From Haloprofundus halobius (GTDB lineage Archaea > Halobacteriota > Halobacteria > Halobacteriales > Haloferacaceae), in contig NZ_CP083666.1 of NCBI RefSeq assembly GCF_020097835.1, positions 3,038,001-3,102,000 of the forward strand: a stretch of 64,000 nt of DNA, read 5' to 3'. Both the position numbers and the translations under genes were made by a program. A model generated the notes under the pieces. The model did not search any database. It was not told the DNA's origin and saw only the letters and a list, made by a program, of their open reading frames with translations. Shown one piece after another: positions 1 to 8,767 of this stretch; the first letter of the stretch is position 1, and each line of letters begins with the position of its first letter.

Positions 1-941
1 ACGAGGACTACATCGCAGAGCCGGTCAAAGAACGTGAGGTCTTCGAGGAGTTCAATGGGACCTTGTTTTTAGATTCTGGAGGATTCAAATTCCTCGGTGG
101 ATACGAACTCGACGGCAGCAATTTCGAAGTCGAGATTGATCAAGCGAAAATCTTCGAGATTCAACAGCGGATGGGTGGCGATATCATCGTCAACTTAGAC
201 CGCCCAATCGCACCGGACGACGACTACGAAACCAGGGTCGAGAAGGCCCGACGGACCGCAGAGAACGTCGTTGAATTTCTCAATCTCTCAGAAGGGACGA
301 TGAGTGCGCGCTTCTTGACGCTCCATGGGTACAACTACTCCATGCTGGACACCTTTCTCGGGGAAATCGACGATATAGTCGGTGCTTCGCGAGTACACGA
401 CGAGTTCGATGGTGTGGCGTTGGGTAGCCTCGTTCCGCTCAAGGATAACAAGGGTCGCCTCATAGACGCGATTCAGGACTGCCGGTCCATACTGAAGGAC
501 TGGGGGTTCGACGACTTGCCGCTTCACGTACTGGGAATTTCGTCGAGTGCGATCCCCCTCTTAGCAGCGGTTGGCGCGGACTCTTTCGACTCCTCGTCGT
601 ACCTTCACTCTGCAATCAACGGAAAGTACAATACCTCTTTGACAGGGTCGAAATCGATTGACGAAGTCGATTTTAGCAAGTGCAACTGTCCAGTCTGCTC
701 TAACGAGGTACTGGTGAGTCGAATGAAGGGTAATGCCGAATACCGAAAAGACGAACTCGGACCAGTAGCGATGCATAATCTCATCGTCCAAAAACGCGAG
801 GTGGCCTATATCAGGGACTGCATCCGCTCACCGGGAACAGACGACCTCATCGAATATCTCGAATCGACACTCGGACAGAACAAATCAATGCGGCTGTTTG
901 CACACCGCGTTGTAAACGAATCGCTCGGCGGGTACTTCTAA
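1..941 (+). CDS. tRNA-guanine transglycosylase-like (DpdA/TGT family) enzyme, 5'-truncated
   Basis: Seen: the frame is open from base 3, so the gene starts left of the window; 312 residues are visible. Numbering from base 63, there is a D-S-G-G-F motif at residues 4-8 (the base-side Asp of TGTs), I-V-N-L-D at 42-46, G-V-A-L-G at 117-121, G-A-D-S-F-D at 171-176 with the expected nucleophile D176 followed by a TGT-like N-G motif, and a C-x-C-x2-C-x25-H zinc site (C207, C209, C212, H238). Family knowledge: TGT enzymes swap a guanine for a 7-deazaguanine; DpdA paralogues do this in DNA, and TGT-like Cap10 proteins occur in type IV CBASS. The usual archaeal tRNA enzyme has PUA-type C-terminal domains, absent here. 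The stop is one base before the GHKL ATPase start, so they share a transcript. Inference: a DNA or nucleotide modification enzyme of a defence locus. Family sure, substrate unknown. Confidence 0.82.
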   Translation, partial: EDYIAEPVKEREVFEEFNGTLFLDSGGFKFLGGYELDGSNFEVEIDQAKIFEIQQRMGGDIIVNLDRPIAPDDDYETRVEKARRTAENVVEFLNLSEGTMSARFLTLHGYNYSMLDTFLGEIDDIVGASRVHDEFDGVALGSLVPLKDNKGRLIDAIQDCRSILKDWGFDDLPLHVLGISSSAIPLLAAVGADSFDSSSYLHSAINGKYNTSLTGSKSIDEVDFSKCNCPVCSNEVLVSRMKGNAEYRKDELGPVAMHNLIVQKREVAYIRDCIRSPGTDDLIEYLESTLGQNKSMRLFAHRVVNESLGGYF

Positions 942-942
942 C

Positions 943-2520
943 ATGCAAGAAACGACTCCAGAGAAACAGACGAGGAAACGACCGAAAGTCAACGAGGTAA
1001 ACGAGTTTTTGGAGATTGCGAGCGACTTCGAGGACCCGCTCGAAGTTATTCGTGAAGCGCTTTCGAACAGTTACGACGCTGGGGCGACGGAGGTAGAAAT
1101 CAGTATTAAGAGCCGTGCTCAGGAGTCAGAAATCATCATCGAGGATAACGGTCGAGGTATGTCTGAGTCGGATCTCGAATCGTTCTTCGACCTCGGTAAT
1201 TCAACGAAGAGTGATCCTGAGCACGACTCAATTGGATACAAGGGGCACGGAACAAAGATTCTCTACAAGAGTAACCAAATCATCGTTGACACGGCCCAAG
1301 AGGGGAAAAACCTCCACGCTGTGATGGACAAGCCGTGGGACACACTCAACAATCGAGAGCTCCCTGAGTACGAGGTTACTGAGTCAACGACGCGTCCGGG
1401 TAATGATGGAACGCGCATCAAGGTAACCGGCTTTAAATCTGGTCGCGGCTTCGCGCCTGAGTCACTCACATACAACAAAATCGAACACTACCTCAAGTGG
1501 AAGACGTTAGCTGGGTCGACGAAGTATCACTTCCATCCAGAGCAGTTCCGTGATCTCGAAATCACCGTAAGGCTTGACGACGGGATCGACGACTCGCGAG
1601 AGAGGTTAGTCACGAACAACAAGCTGGAGTTCCCGGAGGAACAGCTTGATCCCGGTGAGGAGCCGTTCCCGGAAGCTCGGATGTGTAAGCATTACGGGCC
1701 GAAAACCCTCCAGATAGAGGCGGATAACGGTGAGACGACTGAATTGGAGGTCGTCGGAATGGTTGGGGGTAAGGATGCTAGAGATGAGCTTCCGACGTAC
1801 GGTCGACACTCCGCGCAATTCGGGATCTGGCTCGCTAAAGATCACATCAAGGTTGAACGGCTCAACGAGGCAATATCGCACGATAACGAGTTTATTCACT
1901 TCCTCTTCATCGCGAACTCCCAAGACATAGAACTCTCGGCGAACCGAGAGAAGATTCGTAACAAGTCGAGCGCCATCTACCAAGCGATCGAAACGGAACT
2001 CAACTACTTCCTGTCGAAGGTTGCCGCCGATCCGTGGTTTAAAGGGTATCTCGAACAGCGACGGGTTGCGGAGTTGAATCGGAAGGCATCGACCCAACAA
2101 AAGTCCGTGGAAGAACGGAAAAAAGCGGTGACTGAACGTGGACGTTTCGAGGCAACGAATCAATCTGAAGTCATCCTCGGTCTAGAACGGTCAAACAGAG
2201 AGGGAGCGAAGCCGACAATCACCGTCGAAGACTTCGACTTGGGTGCGGACGTGAACGCACTCGTCGAACAGAACGGTCGTCTCTACGGGAGTTCAGTGCA
2301 TCTGAAGCTCACTGATCACTTTGAAGAAGACAAACCGCTCGAGAGTGTAGGAAAGATCCTCTGCTGGGAGATCGGCGATCGAGACAAGCTCCGCGAGATC
2401 GAACGTCGCGGGTATCAGAATGGACACGTAGAATTTGACCTCGAGAGCAACCGAATTACGTACGGTACCAAGTCTCGGCACACCATTCACATCGTCGAAG
2501 TTCCCTCACGATTCGACTAA
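943..2520 (+). CDS. GHKL-type (Hsp90/MORC-like) ATPase of the accessory island
   Basis: Seen: 525 residues with a complete Bergerat ATP fold. The N-box helix has E38, N42 and D45; the G1 box D-N-G-R-G is at 68-72; the G2-type lid G-Y-K-G-H-G is at 98-103, with a G-N-S-T-K-S motif before it. The C-terminal half has no recognised domain but carries charged, probably helical segments at about 345-410. Family knowledge: GHKL ATPases (MutL, MORC, Hsp90, gyrase B) dimerise on ATP and act as clamps, and are common sensors or switches in phage defence. No histidine-kinase phosphoacceptor domain is visible. The ATG lies one base after the TGT-like stop codon, so the two are translated together. Codons are more AT-rich than in genes right of 8.8 kb, as expected for acquired DNA. 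Exact role not known. Confidence 0.85.
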   Translation: MQETTPEKQTRKRPKVNEVNEFLEIASDFEDPLEVIREALSNSYDAGATEVEISIKSRAQESEIIIEDNGRGMSESDLESFFDLGNSTKSDPEHDSIGYKGHGTKILYKSNQIIVDTAQEGKNLHAVMDKPWDTLNNRELPEYEVTESTTRPGNDGTRIKVTGFKSGRGFAPESLTYNKIEHYLKWKTLAGSTKYHFHPEQFRDLEITVRLDDGIDDSRERLVTNNKLEFPEEQLDPGEEPFPEARMCKHYGPKTLQIEADNGETTELEVVGMVGGKDARDELPTYGRHSAQFGIWLAKDHIKVERLNEAISHDNEFIHFLFIANSQDIELSANREKIRNKSSAIYQAIETELNYFLSKVAADPWFKGYLEQRRVAELNRKASTQQKSVEERKKAVTERGRFEATNQSEVILGLERSNREGAKPTITVEDFDLGADVNALVEQNGRLYGSSVHLKLTDHFEEDKPLESVGKILCWEIGDRDKLREIERRGYQNGHVEFDLESNRITYGTKSRHTIHIVEVPSRFD

Positions 2521-2598
2521 TTTCGGCGGGGACTAACACCGCGGCTATCCTCTAGGTGAGTTTTCCTGGTCAAACTACTCTAATTATCCCACCAACTG

Positions 2599-2717
2599 GT
2601 ATATAATCGATACATTGTTATACAATGATATGAATATCATACGCGAATGAGTAGGTGTGGCACGCTTCATACCTTATCTGTAGCACGGGTCCTTCCAAAG
2701 GGATTGACGAGGGAGGG
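2599..2717 (+). promoter_or_regulatory. Promoter and operator-like inverted repeats upstream of the helicase gene
   Basis: The 202-base gap after the ATPase gene is AT-rich. It holds a TATA-like stretch at about 2599-2607, then two overlapping inverted repeats: CATTGT-TAT-ACAATG (2613-2627) and ATGATAT-GA-ATATCAT (2625-2640). A purine-rich GGGAGGG Shine-Dalgarno-like site sits at 2711-2717, six bases before the ATG at 2723. A TATA near 2600 would start RNA about 2625-2630, inside the repeats, giving a leader of roughly 95 bases. Inference: a separately regulated second transcription unit, with a repressor site at the start point. Confidence 0.5.
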
Positions 2718-2722
2718 ATCGA

Positions 2723-5257
2723 ATGAATATCGATAAGCTTGCGGACTCCATTGCTGATCAGAAAACTCCGCGCGAGATATTCCAAAAGGAGTGGCTCGGA
2801 GGGATGCCCGAAGCACAGTGGCCCTCGTACATTGATGAGTCAGCGACGTTGGTGATGGAAGGCATAACGATTGGCGACACAAATCTCACGAAGGGAGATT
2901 TTTCAAGTGAGACGGGTGATCTATATCGACGAGGACTGGCACGGACAACCGGAAGACAACGTTCGGAGACGAGCCTCCCTGTTGGAAGCGTATCTGGTCG
3001 TGACCTCGGAATCGTCATGTGGGCGCTCAATGGATTAAAAGAGGATATTGAGTCCTCACGACATACGAACTACACTTCGACGAGCCGAGCGGTGGAGGCT
3101 GTACTGAACAAGGCGATGATTGGGGCAGTCGCCGACCAGAAGTTCGACTATACAGACTTCGAGCGGATTCGTCTTCCGGAAGGAGCAGCCGTAACCGACC
3201 TCATGGCTGAACTCTTCTGTCGTCCGCGGAGCGATGCGTTTGTAGATGCGTTAGTAGAAATCTCAGAAGAGAGTCGACGGTCGGGAGAAAGCCTCCTACA
3301 GCTACTTGAACAACCGAAGATGGTGACCCCACTCTGGGAGCACCAACGAGAGGCACTCGCCGAATGGCTTGACTCCGGCTGTCGAGGATACGTCGACATG
3401 GCGACTGCAACTGGGAAGACGTTCCTCGGCCTTGCAACCATCGCACATCACTTCGGGGACTTACATCCGAATGATACCGATCTCACGCGAAAGAATCTCC
3501 GTCCAGACACAGACGGTGATGCAACCGTGGTCGTCGTCGCACACCGGTCGGTCATCCTCGACCAGTGGAAGCGAGAGTTCGACCGGCATCTCAATATCCC
3601 GAAAGAGGCGTCAGCTAGCGACGGAGAATACACGGCTCGCTATTCGTGGGGAGAGGTGCATTTCTGGACGCCAAATCGGTTGTTAGAAAGAGACGTCCCC
3701 GATGCTGACCTCGTCGTCCTCGACGAGACGCACCACTACGTCGGAGGAAGCGGCTTTGGTGCTCTCTTGGACCAGATGAGTGGTCATTTACTGGCGCTCT
3801 CGGGATCGCTCAACGAGAAGAACAGTAACACACTTGAGCGACGTCAGATACCGAAACTGTTCGAGTTCTCCCTCCGAGACGGCCAGCGTGTCGGGATTAT
3901 CCCCCAGTGTGATTGGCACGTCAGAATTGTCCCGTTCGAAGGCCAATCGACGCTCGCCGAGGTGACAGAGCAGTATCGTACCGGTTATGACCAGTACTCC
4001 GACGGATCAGCAGCGTCAGTTCTCGAAGACGTAGCTGATGCCCAGTTGTCTTTCAATTCGCTCTCTGAGGCACGGTCTGTTACGCAATCTCGATACGGTC
4101 GAGAAGTGAAGGAGCGCGACGACAACTTCCGGAAGTTCTCTGCTGCAACCAAGTCTCGGGGGTTGACAAAGTACAATCTCTCGCCGACGCTCTCTGCGAT
4201 CACGACCATCACGCTAAACCACGTTCACGACCACAAATGCGTAGTCCTCCTCAACTCCGGAGATGAGATTGAAACCGTCGTCTCGGGACTGCGCAGAGAA
4301 CTGGGCGAAAACTTCGACGACCTCGTGATCGACCTCGATAGTTACGATGGTGACCCGCTTGAGGCAATCGAGTCGTTCGACGAGAAGCGGGAGGTGGGTG
4401 TGATTATCGGAACCGCCTCCACACTCGGAGAGGGTGTCGACATCAAAACCGCAGACGTCGGGATCAACCGTTCAAGCGGTCGCCTTAGCCACTCGCTCGT
4501 CCAACGAATTGGTCGAATCCTTAGGAACCCTGATGGCGACAAACGAGCGACCTTTTACCACGTTGTCGGGATTCCTACAGAGGAGGACGCAGTACTCCTC
4601 AAAGAGGACGGACAGGAATTGCTCGACATGGCGAGTCAGCTCGTCACTTGGGGAGAATCGTTCGACGCCCGACCTGGGTTCGAGACGATGGGGGTTGGTG
4701 TCGACGAGTCACTCTACCAACTCGAACAGCACGGAGCGCACGGGATTCTTGAATCGGATTCCTACTCCTGGCCGACGAACGAAAACGCTCGAGAACGACT
4801 TCTCGGCATCTGTGAAGAGATCCGCGGAAGTGAGGAGTCAGTTCTCCTCAAAATGGACCCTCAGCTCACGTCTGGCACACGACCATCGAACAGGACGAAC
4901 TACGTTTCGAGTCACAGTGATTCGAAGATTGAGCTTCCAATGACTCTCTTGAAGGCCGTTTCAGAGCACGTTGAGGGGAACGCCTCTATCGGTCACGATA
5001 GTCGATTCATTGAACAGGCCATTCGAGAAGGACTCGAAGAAATTGAGATTACGAAAATAGGCGACAGTGAATCTGATTCGAACACAGACTTCTTGAGCGC
5101 CGTCGAGATCAACCCAGTACTCTGTTCAGTGCTGCGAGTCGCGCTCGCGTCAACCGGAGTATCGTCCAGCGAGTTCGCTCAGATGGCGGTCAAGAAAGCC
5201 CTCTCCAAACATGTCACTAACAATAAGGGCGCATTCGACGCGAGCACGTTACAATGA
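2723..5257 (+). CDS. DEAD/DEAH-type superfamily 2 helicase
   Basis: Seen: 844 residues. After an N-terminal region of about 200 residues without a recognised domain comes an H-Q-R-E (Q-like) motif near 214, a Walker A variant M-A-T-A-T-G-K-T at 226-233, D-E-T-H (motif II) at 334-337, an S-G-S motif III, a G-E-G-V-D-I motif V, and Q-R-I-G-R-I-L-R (motif VI) at 594-601. This order fits the type III restriction/UvrB-like branch of SF2. Residues about 734-775 resemble a ribbon-helix-helix-like segment. Family knowledge: such helicases translocate on DNA or RNA and drive many defence systems. No nuclease motif is seen in the chain. The start is supported by a strong Shine-Dalgarno-like site. The stop overlaps the next gene start by four bases (ATGA), so translation of the two is coupled. 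Confidence 0.88.
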   Translation: MNIDKLADSIADQKTPREIFQKEWLGGMPEAQWPSYIDESATLVMEGITIGDTNLTKGDFSSETGDLYRRGLARTTGRQRSETSLPVGSVSGRDLGIVMWALNGLKEDIESSRHTNYTSTSRAVEAVLNKAMIGAVADQKFDYTDFERIRLPEGAAVTDLMAELFCRPRSDAFVDALVEISEESRRSGESLLQLLEQPKMVTPLWEHQREALAEWLDSGCRGYVDMATATGKTFLGLATIAHHFGDLHPNDTDLTRKNLRPDTDGDATVVVVAHRSVILDQWKREFDRHLNIPKEASASDGEYTARYSWGEVHFWTPNRLLERDVPDADLVVLDETHHYVGGSGFGALLDQMSGHLLALSGSLNEKNSNTLERRQIPKLFEFSLRDGQRVGIIPQCDWHVRIVPFEGQSTLAEVTEQYRTGYDQYSDGSAASVLEDVADAQLSFNSLSEARSVTQSRYGREVKERDDNFRKFSAATKSRGLTKYNLSPTLSAITTITLNHVHDHKCVVLLNSGDEIETVVSGLRRELGENFDDLVIDLDSYDGDPLEAIESFDEKREVGVIIGTASTLGEGVDIKTADVGINRSSGRLSHSLVQRIGRILRNPDGDKRATFYHVVGIPTEEDAVLLKEDGQELLDMASQLVTWGESFDARPGFETMGVGVDESLYQLEQHGAHGILESDSYSWPTNENARERLLGICEEIRGSEESVLLKMDPQLTSGTRPSNRTNYVSSHSDSKIELPMTLLKAVSEHVEGNASIGHDSRFIEQAIREGLEEIEITKIGDSESDSNTDFLSAVEINPVLCSVLRVALASTGVSSSEFAQMAVKKALSKHVTNNKGAFDASTLQ

Positions 5258-8200
5258 ATTTACGAATCGAAGCCGAAGTTAGTCGGCTTACGCAGTGGAA
5301 CCGCCGGTCGCGATTACTGAAAGCCGGTGTGTTAATGGTGATTGTAGCGATTGTCGGCGCTCTACTCTGGGATTTTGAACAGGCCACGGCTCTCGCACTC
5401 ACCAGTTTTATTTCGTATATTCTGCTCGGACTTCTCATCTCGTTTGGATGGGTAACGTATCGACGGAAACAGGCGGTAGCATCGGTTGAGACTGCGGCAA
5501 AGGAACACTTGGCACAAGAACGAGAGCGTATCGACGACGACCTCAATAAGGGTGCAGTAGAGAGTGCAACGGTCCGCGTTGAATCGCTCGAACAGACGTA
5601 CCAATTTCTCGTAGACGATGTAGAATCAGAGAGGCTCCGAACGGAAGTTGAGTCTTACCTTACAGCTATCGATGAATTACGGACACGGGTTGAGAAGGGG
5701 ACTGCTGAGTGGGAAACGCTATCTAGCTCAATCGAACTTGTCAAGGAAAAACTGGACGCGGCTGAAAATGAGTACGAGGCTGAAAACTTCGATTCAGCAC
5801 TAGAGATATATCGCACACTCGAACCCGCAATAGAGGATCTCTCGTCAGCAACTCTCACAGTTACATCGTCCTCTGGAGACGCCTTACCGCCCGTCGAAAC
5901 GGTATCCTCGAAATATTGGCGTGGCTATTTCCAAACAACGCTGACAGTCGGCTACATTCAAATGCAGGAAGGGGACGAACTCCTGTCCCAGTCGGCTCAA
6001 AACGCGTGTAAGACGTACCAAGAGGCCACGAAAAATGTCGAGCAGGCCGTAGATCTCGCAGAGTCGGAAGACATCACCTACAACGATATTGACTTCCTTG
6101 GCTCGCCGATACCTCAGCCAACACTAACTGACATAGATGGTATTGGGGAACAGCGAGCAGACTCACTACGTGACCACGGCATCGAGTCGCCAGTAGACAT
6201 CGTCGAAGCCAATTCTCTCTCTCATATCCCTCGGATTGGAGAGAAAACAGAGCGACGCCTCCGCCGTTCTGCTGAGTCTCTAGTCGAGAATTTCCTGGAA
6301 GTTCAACACGGGAAGGCACACACGAAGTATTCGAAGCTAAACGACTGGGTCTGCCTTCACGATGAGAGTGTTGGTCTACTGGAAAAGGCTGAGGACGCAG
6401 TTGTCAAAGCGCGCACAAACCTTCTAGACGGAAAAGACGAGGAGACGGGATCTGAGTTACAAAAGGCAGATCAGATTACTGATGAAGTAGAGAGTAAACT
6501 ACGCTCGCTCGTAGAGAACGAGTTTCAAGTGGAACTTTCCACACAAGTCGACGAACTCCACAACCAGTTGACACGTGTAAATCAGTCTATACGACTTCTC
6601 TCTTCGATTACTGCCTGTAACGAGCAGATCGGAATTAGCGAATCAGCGATTCAAGATGGAAATTTCACCTCTGCACTCGACCACGTGAATCGTGGTAAGA
6701 AACACCTCGATGCGGCAAATCAAATCACCACGCAGTTGAGCGAACACGAATGGACTCAACCAGTCGAGCGCCGTAGAGAAAAGCTCGACAGACTGGACAA
6801 TCAGATACACGCTGAACTTGAGACACAGAAAATCGAAAAACGACTCGATGAAGCAGAGCGTGATATCGAGCACGCAATCAATGGCCTCGGTGAGGATACG
6901 ACCGCGGTCGACATTGAAGCTTCAGTTGATCATCTCGAGTCGGCAGTAAGTACCATCAAAACGGTTCAACCCATCGTCGAGAGTGTCGGCGGAGCAGCAC
7001 AAGAACGGTTGGAGTGCTTGGCGAACCAAGCCGAGGAGACCGAAGAGTTAGTTGAGCGGTATCGAAACTCACTAGAATTCGATTCGTTGATTGAATCGGT
7101 CGAAGAGCAGATCAAAGCTGGCGTCGAAGCGAGTAAAGAGGGCTCGTATCAAAGTTCGAGTGGACACTTTGGGCACGCGAAACAAGAGCTAAATGCGGCG
7201 ACTGAACTCGTCGGAAAAGTCGACCGAAGCGATGCTGGTAAACAGGTCAGACAGTTATCTCGCCGTTTGGAAAGCGAGCGCTCCGACGCGCTCCGACGGA
7301 AGCATTTCAGTATTTGTTGGAGCTTGATGGAACGCGCAGAGAAAGCAGTCGCTCGAGCCATTGACCACCTCGAAACCAACGCGTACGATGACGCAGCGAA
7401 GGGGTTCACTGAGGCGATAGAACATCTATCTGACGCCGAACAGTGGGCTCAGAGATCCGACTTAGCAGAACAATGGGAGATCAAGCAACGCCTAGACACA
7501 CTCTGTGAGTACAGGTCGAATGCCGAGTCGTCTCTCGAAACGTATCTAAAGCGCCGCTCGTCGGAGGCTGCCCAGCATCTCGACAGAGCAAATCAACTCA
7601 TCTCGAAGAGCCACCAGCAACTCGATATTGAGGACGCGAGTGCAGCGAACGAGAGCTGGATGACCGCTCGCGACTCGCTGGATACGGCCAAGGAAATAAT
7701 CGGTAATTCGCAGCTGCAAAATGCCGCGAATCTCGAGGAAAGACACCGTGAGACGGAAAGACGTCTCACAGAGTTGCGAAACGCTATCGAACGGTCTGGG
7801 TACGACATTTCCGGAGCAAGCCGTACTAGGCTCGTTGATGAACTCCAAGAACTGGCGGTGACCATCGGAGAATCCCCGCGAGAAGAGTTCGTCGACGCCT
7901 GTGGGAGGTACCCCTCAGACGAGTACGTAGAGATGTTCGGCTCGTGGGAGGATGCACTTCGTGCAGCTAACTTGGAACCGGTCGACTGGGCCTCCAGAAA
8001 TCGACGCAAATACACTCGTGTCGATATCCTTGAGTCGGTCGCCGAACTGACGAGGACATTCGGTCGATACCCGACCAAGGCCGAGATGAACGACCAAGGT
8101 TCAATGTCCGTTTCAACGGTAGAGACTCGGTTTGGGACGTGGGAGAGCGCCCTCGATCTGGCTGAGCGCATTGAGCTTAGTTCGGAGTTGTCGAGAGATG

Positions 8201-8403
8201 ACGCAGTTGCCGAACTCACCGGGATTAGTGGCGTGACAGCGACTGAAGCGTCGATACTCTACGATGCCGGGTTGACCTCGGTTATAGATGTACAGAAAGC
8301 GACGATGGAGAATCTCCTCGCTATTGATGGAATCTCAAAACAAATCGCGTTGCGGATGAAAGCCGACGTTGGTGAGCTAACTACGGAGTCCCAAGTGCGT
8401 TAG
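5254..8403 (+). CDS. Large membrane-anchored coiled-coil protein with HhH domains and HNH-associated repeats
   Basis: Seen: 1049 residues. Two hydrophobic segments (about 22-39 and 44-67) anchor the N-terminus. A very long acidic helical region follows, rich in heptad-like E, L, A and R patterns. It is interrupted at about 288-346 by a double helix-hairpin-helix (I-D-G-I-G and I-P-R-I-G hairpins). Near the C-terminus are two copies (about 858-908 and 920-972) of a repeat ending in F-G-S-W / F-G-T-W-E-x-A-L, which matches the homing-endonuclease-associated repeat, then a final HhH pair at about 988-1040. No catalytic nuclease motif is visible. Family knowledge: HhH and these repeats bind DNA. 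Inference: it tethers DNA or the helicase complex to the membrane, or senses invading DNA there. The architecture is not one I recognise from a named system. Confidence 0.8.
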   Translation: MNLRIEAEVSRLTQWNRRSRLLKAGVLMVIVAIVGALLWDFEQATALALTSFISYILLGLLISFGWVTYRRKQAVASVETAAKEHLAQERERIDDDLNKGAVESATVRVESLEQTYQFLVDDVESERLRTEVESYLTAIDELRTRVEKGTAEWETLSSSIELVKEKLDAAENEYEAENFDSALEIYRTLEPAIEDLSSATLTVTSSSGDALPPVETVSSKYWRGYFQTTLTVGYIQMQEGDELLSQSAQNACKTYQEATKNVEQAVDLAESEDITYNDIDFLGSPIPQPTLTDIDGIGEQRADSLRDHGIESPVDIVEANSLSHIPRIGEKTERRLRRSAESLVENFLEVQHGKAHTKYSKLNDWVCLHDESVGLLEKAEDAVVKARTNLLDGKDEETGSELQKADQITDEVESKLRSLVENEFQVELSTQVDELHNQLTRVNQSIRLLSSITACNEQIGISESAIQDGNFTSALDHVNRGKKHLDAANQITTQLSEHEWTQPVERRREKLDRLDNQIHAELETQKIEKRLDEAERDIEHAINGLGEDTTAVDIEASVDHLESAVSTIKTVQPIVESVGGAAQERLECLANQAEETEELVERYRNSLEFDSLIESVEEQIKAGVEASKEGSYQSSSGHFGHAKQELNAATELVGKVDRSDAGKQVRQLSRRLESERSDALRRKHFSICWSLMERAEKAVARAIDHLETNAYDDAAKGFTEAIEHLSDAEQWAQRSDLAEQWEIKQRLDTLCEYRSNAESSLETYLKRRSSEAAQHLDRANQLISKSHQQLDIEDASAANESWMTARDSLDTAKEIIGNSQLQNAANLEERHRETERRLTELRNAIERSGYDISGASRTRLVDELQELAVTIGESPREEFVDACGRYPSDEYVEMFGSWEDALRAANLEPVDWASRNRRKYTRVDILESVAELTRTFGRYPTKAEMNDQGSMSVSTVETRFGTWESALDLAERIELSSELSRDDAVAELTGISGVTATEASILYDAGLTSVIDVQKATMENLLAIDGISKQIALRMKADVGELTTESQVR

Positions 8404-8694: not shown

Positions 8695-8767
8695 CGGACC
8701 CGACGGGATTTGAACCCGCGACATCTTGGTCCGGAACCAAGCACTCTGTCCACTGAGCTACGGGCCC
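8695..8767 (-). tRNA. tRNA-Arg (anticodon CCG)
   Basis: The minus strand folds into a full cloverleaf of 73 bases: acceptor stem GGGCCCG with CGGGTCC, anticodon stem CTTGG/CCAAG around the loop TTCCGGA (anticodon CCG), T-loop TTCAAAT, discriminator G. No CCA is encoded and no intron is seen. The 3' end points left into the AT-rich island, the usual arrangement when an integrase has used a tRNA 3' end as its attachment site. Confidence 0.95.

What the first reader, a model, noticed from the sequence alone, without database searches (positions are those of the whole stretch)
5254..8403. Unusual architecture: two membrane helices, about 800 residues of coiled coil, two HhH modules and two homing-endonuclease-associated repeats
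DNA-binding modules sit both in the middle and at the C-terminus of a membrane-tethered rod. Homing-endonuclease-associated repeats normally flank nucleases, yet no nuclease motif is visible. It could tether DNA or the helicase at the membrane during infection.
Basis: partly seen in the sequence, partly recalled or inferred. Interest (0 to 1): 0.75.

Follow-up and report, generated by a model that had tools for sequence, protein, structure and literature searches.

The report
Membrane-anchored DNA-binding arm of defence helicase
A salt-loving archaeon makes a long membrane-anchored protein with two kinds of DNA-gripping modules that travels with, and in relatives is replaced by a fused extension of, a DNA helicase in anti-virus gene islands, so it is probably the arm that holds DNA for that helicase rather than a viral gene.

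Summary
The 1049-residue protein at 5254-8403(+) has an N-terminal hydrophobic hairpin, two HhH domains and two homing-endonuclease-associated repeats (HEARs). The "coiled coil" is better read as tandem ~80-residue three-helix, spectrin/MIT/TPR-like repeats, at least for residues ~458-848.

It is not viral: no relative was found in 50,697 phage records or, with a two-pattern scan, in IMG/VR. It lies at the edge of a host low-GC defence island beside tRNA-Arg. That island encodes two extra TGTs, a DpdC-family protein, a GHKL ATPase, several helicases and an ATPase.

Full-length relatives are rare (six species). In five of six the same helicase is the gene immediately upstream; here the two genes overlap by ATGA. 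Across 27 helicase loci, 22 have a HEAR/HhH partner as the next gene (10) or fused to the helicase's C-terminus (12). Some fusions also include a nuclease-containing Hhe chain. The pair occurs next to Dpd-like and PbeA/PbeC systems.

Best explanation: this is the membrane-anchored, DNA-binding subunit of a portable SF2-helicase defence module. The helicase link is well supported. DNA binding rests on domain identity. Membrane capture of incoming DNA is inferred (hairpin in four of six relatives). Nothing was tested biochemically.

The parts
5254..8403 (+). the finding: membrane-anchored HhH / helical-repeat / HEAR / HhH protein (ROD), 1049 aa
5254..5257 (+). ATGA overlap of helicase stop and ROD start; suggests translational coupling
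   Evidence: coordinates
5314..5445 (+). two hydrophobic helices (aa 21-39, 46-64), hairpin predicted N-in/C-in
6121..6273 (+). middle HhH domain (aa 290-340), HHH_5
   Evidence: low model confidence
6625..7797 (+). tandem ~80-aa three-helix repeats (aa 458-848), spectrin/MIT/TPR-like
7819..7977 (+). HEAR 1 (aa 856-908), PF18780
8026..8169 (+). HEAR 2 (aa 925-972), PF18780
8209..8382 (+). C-terminal HhH domain (aa 986-1043), RadA/Rad51 N-terminal-like
2723..5257 (+). SF2 helicase (HEL), partner gene; DExH motif LDETHHY; distantly similar to PbeA / dnd_restrict_1
943..2520 (+). GHKL-type ATPase of the modification module
1..941 (+). TGT2, C-terminal part (full 414-aa gene starts upstream of the window, L008:3697-4941)
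8695..8767 (-). tRNA-Arg(CCG) at the right edge of the low-GC island

Best explanation
ROD is the accessory DNA-binding subunit of the SF2 helicase HEL encoded immediately upstream, in a haloarchaeal defence island based on DNA modification. An N-terminal hairpin holds it in the cell membrane with both ends in the cytoplasm. A spectrin/MIT-like helical arm carries a double-HEAR and an (HhH)2 domain at its tip and another HhH nearer the membrane. These modules grip DNA and deliver it to HEL, which translocates on it. Target DNA is presumably DNA lacking the host's base modification, made by the extra TGTs plus the DpdC-family enzyme, or other foreign DNA. Inhibition or cleavage is left to other subunits of the island; in relatives a nuclease is fused to the same module. 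Shown here: the domains, gene order, fission/fusion with the helicase, the defence context and the absence of viral relatives. Inferred: physical complex, DNA binding, membrane insertion, discrimination by base modification, and capture of DNA at the membrane.
For: HEL is directly upstream on the same strand in 5 of 6 species with a full-length ROD and overlaps ROD by 4 nt here. Of 27 HEL loci, 10 have a HEAR/HhH gene at +1 and 12 carry HEAR/HhH domains fused after the helicase; two with fusions encode the TM+HhH half as a separate gene next door (G147, G193). Several fusions (L086 and six others) continue into an Hhe-type chain; in L086 it includes the MTES_1575 nuclease. The island has DpdH/DpdJ-like genes and a module of two TGTs, DUF6884 (matches PF03883, the DpdC family) and GHKL; TGT2 plus GHKL recur in 23 of 29 loci with this DpdH. 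The genome has its normal TgtA elsewhere, so the island TGTs are extra. HhH and HEAR are found by curated models, and the C-terminal HhH matches the RadA fold. The hydrophobic hairpin is present in 4 of 6 rods although their N-termini align poorly.
Against: No experiment. The rod core is rare (6 species) and its N-terminal half is poorly modelled. Rods of H. walsbyi and Halorientalis lack the hairpin. The Halorientalis rod has no HEL beside it. One close HEL (G313, 46% identity) has no rod next to it. HEARs have no solved structure among the sequence matches, and DNA binding by them is by association. DpdH/DpdJ and TGT matches lie below curated equivalog cut-offs. The HEL model is weak (pLDDT 55).
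Confidence: 0.55

Rival explanations
1. ROD is the target-recognition or self/non-self subunit: its HEAR pair reads a sequence or the 7-deazaguanine state of DNA and licenses HEL, like the specificity subunit of a type I restriction enzyme; the membrane hairpin is incidental.
For: HEAR number varies from 2 to 11 among HEL partners; each rod keeps a HEAR pair with an invariant core; the H. walsbyi rod carries a DpnI_C winged helix where others have HhH, and in DpnI that domain helps recognise methylated DNA (own knowledge).
Against: HEARs are very common outside modification islands; HhH domains are usually not sequence-specific (own knowledge); the hairpin recurs in 4 of 6 rods.
Confidence: 0.25
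2. ROD is a chromosome- or plasmid-organising membrane tether, with HEL a bystander.
For: The Halorientalis relative lies near a Cdc6 gene on a plasmid without HEL; it matches EzrA and SbsC spectrin-like families.
Against: HEL is adjacent in 5 of 6 species and helicase-HEAR fusions recur; no SMC or ParA ATPase in the protein; rarity argues against housekeeping.
Confidence: 0.1
3. ROD is a gene of a provirus or virus that tethers DNA at the membrane during infection.
For: Low-GC island beside a tRNA gene.
Against: No match in phage records for ROD or HEL, none in IMG/VR with a two-pattern scan, no convincing viral fold match, no second att copy; neighbours are defence genes.
Confidence: 0.04

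Closest known systems
Dpd (7-deazaguanine DNA modification/restriction) systems
   Same: TGT paralogues, a PF03883 (DpdC-family) protein, DpdH- and DpdJ-like ATPase and helicase in one island
   Different: two TGTs (one with DUF5591), a GHKL ATPase, no DpdB found among 13 proteins scanned, matches below curated cut-offs, and a HEL-ROD pair
PbeABCD / CxC ABC-ATPase-DndE systems of archaea
   Same: HEL is a distant relative of the PbeA helicase; in H. walsbyi HEL-ROD is followed by PbeA- and PbeC-type genes
   Different: no DndC in this genome, no PbeC among the island proteins scanned, no HKD nuclease domain found in HEL
Hhe helicase-nuclease
   Same: several HEL-HEAR proteins are fused to an Hhe-type chain
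   Different: ROD and HEL of the window carry no nuclease and are separate genes
HEAR-bearing HNH homing endonucleases
   Same: PF18780 repeats
   Different: no HNH or other nuclease domain; repeats sit on a membrane-anchored arm beside HhH
EzrA / SbsC spectrin-like and MIT-repeat proteins
   Same: three-helix repeat architecture; EzrA is also membrane-anchored (own knowledge)
   Different: DNA-binding modules at the tip; no evidence for FtsZ, S-layer or ESCRT roles

Membership tests
HNH homing endonuclease with HEARs | PF18780 repeats | tested here: met
   81 bits against cut-off 26
HNH homing endonuclease with HEARs | HNH or other nuclease domain in the protein | tested here: not met
   no nuclease family in Pfam, PADLOC or NCBIfam scans
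Dpd system | DpdA-type TGT above the curated cut-off | tested here: not met
   TGT2 fragment 26.8 bits against 200; TGT1 has no DpdA hit
Dpd system | DpdC-family (PF03883) protein | tested here: met
   39.1 bits against 29.6; DpdC = PF03883 per PMC12839542
Dpd system | DpdB ParB-like ATPase | tested here: inconclusive
   no hit among 13 island proteins scanned; the rest of the island was not scanned
Dpd system | DpdH and DpdJ restriction proteins above cut-off | tested here: not met
   DpdH 31.9 bits against 450; DpdJ 69.9 against 800
Dpd system | 7-deazaguanine present in host DNA | not testable with these tools
   needs nucleoside mass spectrometry
PbeABCD / phosphorothioate system | DndC in the genome | tested here: not met
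   TIGR03183 search of own genome found nothing
PbeABCD / phosphorothioate system | PbeA helicase | tested here: inconclusive
   HEL matches a PbeA model at 77 bits in two short stretches, far below genuine PbeA-type neighbours (544 bits)
RadA/Rad51 N-terminal HhH fold (C-terminal domain only) | five-helix (HhH)2 fold | tested here: met
   1.4 A over 58 residues, Z 9.2
SMC / Rad50-like coiled-coil ATPase | ABC ATPase head | tested here: not met
   no P-loop ATPase family in the protein

The most novel reading that the evidence does not exclude
Haloarchaea use a membrane-anchored arm to catch DNA at the point of entry and hand it to a defence helicase: a portable capture module (anchor + DNA grip + helicase) that is split, fused and shared between 7-deazaguanine, PbeA/PbeC and Hhe-type defence systems.
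Probability: 0.3. Interest if true: 0.8.

Novelty: new variant of a known kind. Interest (0 to 1): 0.62.

Why it matters
Few archaeal defence systems beyond CRISPR are understood. A recurring helicase plus DNA-binding partner that moves between modification-based systems would be a common effector module, and its membrane anchor would make it testable whether defence can act where foreign DNA enters. It also gives the widespread HEARs of haloarchaea a context other than homing endonucleases. In the open-access papers searched I found no description of this protein or of an archaeal Dpd-like island; most subscription papers were not searchable.

Tried and rejected
Homing endonuclease or nuclease: no nuclease domain. 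Viral origin: no relatives in phages or IMG/VR (two patterns only); viral fold search gave only long-helix matches with rmsd 15-93 A. Integrated element with att repeats: the tRNA 3' sequence occurs once, others only with 2-3 mismatches at distant loci. Plain coiled coil: rejected for 458-848 by repeat profiles against shuffles. Phosphorothioate system in this genome: no DndC. I first labelled the 309/369-aa island protein 'PLD' by analogy with DpdK; it has no Pfam hit and no HKD motif seen, so the label was dropped. 'PbeC' near the Natrinema rod is probably a Rad50-like gene next to an Mre11-like phosphoesterase and was not counted. HEL folding (pLDDT 55) was too weak to use beyond an apparently all-helical N-terminus. 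The Hel308 match over 855-1040 (Z 10.4) has rmsd 11.4 A and was not used.

Full report
What is there. The ORF at 5254-8403(+) encodes 1049 aa. Its ATG overlaps the stop of the helicase gene (HEL, 2723-5257) by ATGA. Curated models confirm two HEARs (PF18780, 81 bits, cut-off 26) and two HhH domains (HHH_5, 59.5 bits, cut-off 27). Hydropathy gives two strong peaks at residues 21-39 and 46-64. The sequence has basic residues before and after this hairpin and an acidic loop inside it, which predicts that both ends lie in the cytoplasm. This crude hairpin test fired on one of 40 window ORFs.

The rod. Profiles built from single ~80-residue units find other copies along the chain: unit 617-700 also hits 458-538 at 34.8 bits, while 200 shuffles that preserve heptad position never exceeded 10.8. 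A profile of the conserved core matches the MIT repeats of calpain-7 (4.6e-6) and designed TPR proteins. A relative matches the EzrA and SbsC spectrin-like families. The AlphaFold2 model (7 sequences, mean pLDDT 68, about 90 over 530-850) shows alternating short and long helices, four helices per HEAR, and a five-helix C-terminal domain. That domain superposes on archaeal RadA's N-terminal HhH at 1.4 A over 58 residues. The arm is therefore a tandem helical-repeat arm at least over 458-848. The middle HhH rests on sequence only, and 66-457 is poorly modelled.

Genome context. The window is G000:C1:3038001-3102000. GC is 50-61% for at least 48 kb to the left, then 68% or more beyond the gene, with tRNA-Arg(CCG) at 8695-8767. 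No second att copy was found. The island to the left encodes: an SF1 helicase; a DpdJ/DruE-like helicase with an MZB domain; 369-, 275- and 225-aa proteins; a DpdH-like ATPase; a TGT with DUF5591; a 752-aa protein with six HEARs and one HhH; a DUF6884/PF03883 protein; a second TGT; a GHKL ATPase; then HEL and ROD. PF03883 is the DpdC family (PMC12839542). The genome has its normal TgtA elsewhere (623 bits), so the island TGTs are extra and plausibly act on DNA. Matches to DpdA, DpdH and DpdJ are far below curated cut-offs and no DpdB was found among the proteins scanned, so I call the island Dpd-like, not Dpd.

Distribution. The DpdH-like gene is in 29 of 391 haloarchaeal genomes. Annotation of these loci shows the operon DpdJ-309-275-DpdH-225 in all 29, TGT2 plus GHKL in 23, and a HEAR and/or HhH protein nearby in 21. 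Full-length ROD relatives (>=30% identity over the core, A2) were found in Natronorubrum texcoconense, Natrinema hispanicum, Haloprofundus marisrubri, Haloquadratum walsbyi J07HQW2 and Halorientalis marina, besides the window. A further profile search of 392 genomes of the order, largely the same draw, added none. HEL is immediately upstream in all but Halorientalis. The hairpin is present in four of six; H. walsbyi and Halorientalis lack it. In H. walsbyi a DpnI_C winged helix replaces the middle HhH.

Fission and fusion. HEL homologues occur in 47 of 391 genomes. Of the 27 HEL loci examined, 10 have a HEAR or HhH gene as the next gene on the same strand and 12 carry HEAR/HhH domains fused after the helicase; the exceptions are G313, G040, G244, G365 and G182, the last with the related C-terminal domain and Hhe. 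In two fusion cases a separate membrane+HhH gene (608 and 615 aa) lies directly upstream of the helicase, so the two halves of ROD exist as separate parts. Seven proteins run on from HEL into an Hhe-type chain, in L086 with the MTES_1575 nuclease and a PH domain. HEL-ROD of H. walsbyi is followed by PbeA/PbeC-type genes. HEAR genes occur in a minority of genomes and few per genome, so this repeated adjacency is not chance.

Not viral. ROD and HEL have no match in 50,697 phage records. A two-pattern scan of 2.9 million viral contigs found no ROD relative, and fold matches in viral proteins are only long helices.

Mechanism. Shown: domains, order, fusion, defence context. Inferred: ROD sits in the membrane, holds DNA with HEAR and HhH modules, and feeds it to HEL; discrimination by modification and the final inhibition of foreign DNA lie with other island proteins. 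PbeABCD in archaea blocks virus DNA replication without visible cleavage (PMC6459918), so a non-nucleolytic outcome is possible. The main uncertainty is whether the anchor matters: two relatives do without it. The rival that HEARs provide target recognition is not excluded.

Verdict. A well-supported helicase partner with a new domain architecture in a Dpd-like archaeal defence island; a new variant of a known kind.

Noticed in passing
L007:16434-18692(-) (G000:C1:3034434-3036692): A 752-aa protein with six HEARs and a C-terminal HhH, paralogous to the ROD tip, 6.6 kb upstream of ROD; its 497-690 domain is the part most often fused to HEL elsewhere.
   Followed up: partly
L086:1106-10906(-), also L087, L088, L099-L102: 2.4-3.3-kaa proteins joining HEL with an Hhe-type chain (in six of the seven with two HEARs between); in L086 the chain carries the MTES_1575 nuclease and a bacterial PH domain.
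   Followed up: partly
29 haloarchaeal loci: A conserved five-gene operon (DpdJ-309-275-DpdH-225) usually with TGT1/DUF6884/TGT2/GHKL; looks like an undescribed archaeal Dpd-like system. G054 carries a second 275-DpdH-225 set.
   Followed up: partly
L042:8310-11504(+): H. walsbyi rod relative with a DpnI_C winged helix and four HEARs and no membrane hairpin, followed by PbeA- and PbeC-type genes.
   Followed up: partly
L044:8714-11323(+): HEAR protein of a Dpd-like island with bacterial PH, PadR-like and HhH domains: another possible membrane-linked variant.
   Followed up: no
window 2521-2722: 202-bp AT-rich gap between GHKL and HEL with TATA-like stretches; HEL-ROD may be its own transcription unit.
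   Followed up: no
G000:C1:184818-187413: Canonical TgtA followed by an ArcS-like gene, showing the island TGTs are additional copies.
   Followed up: yes
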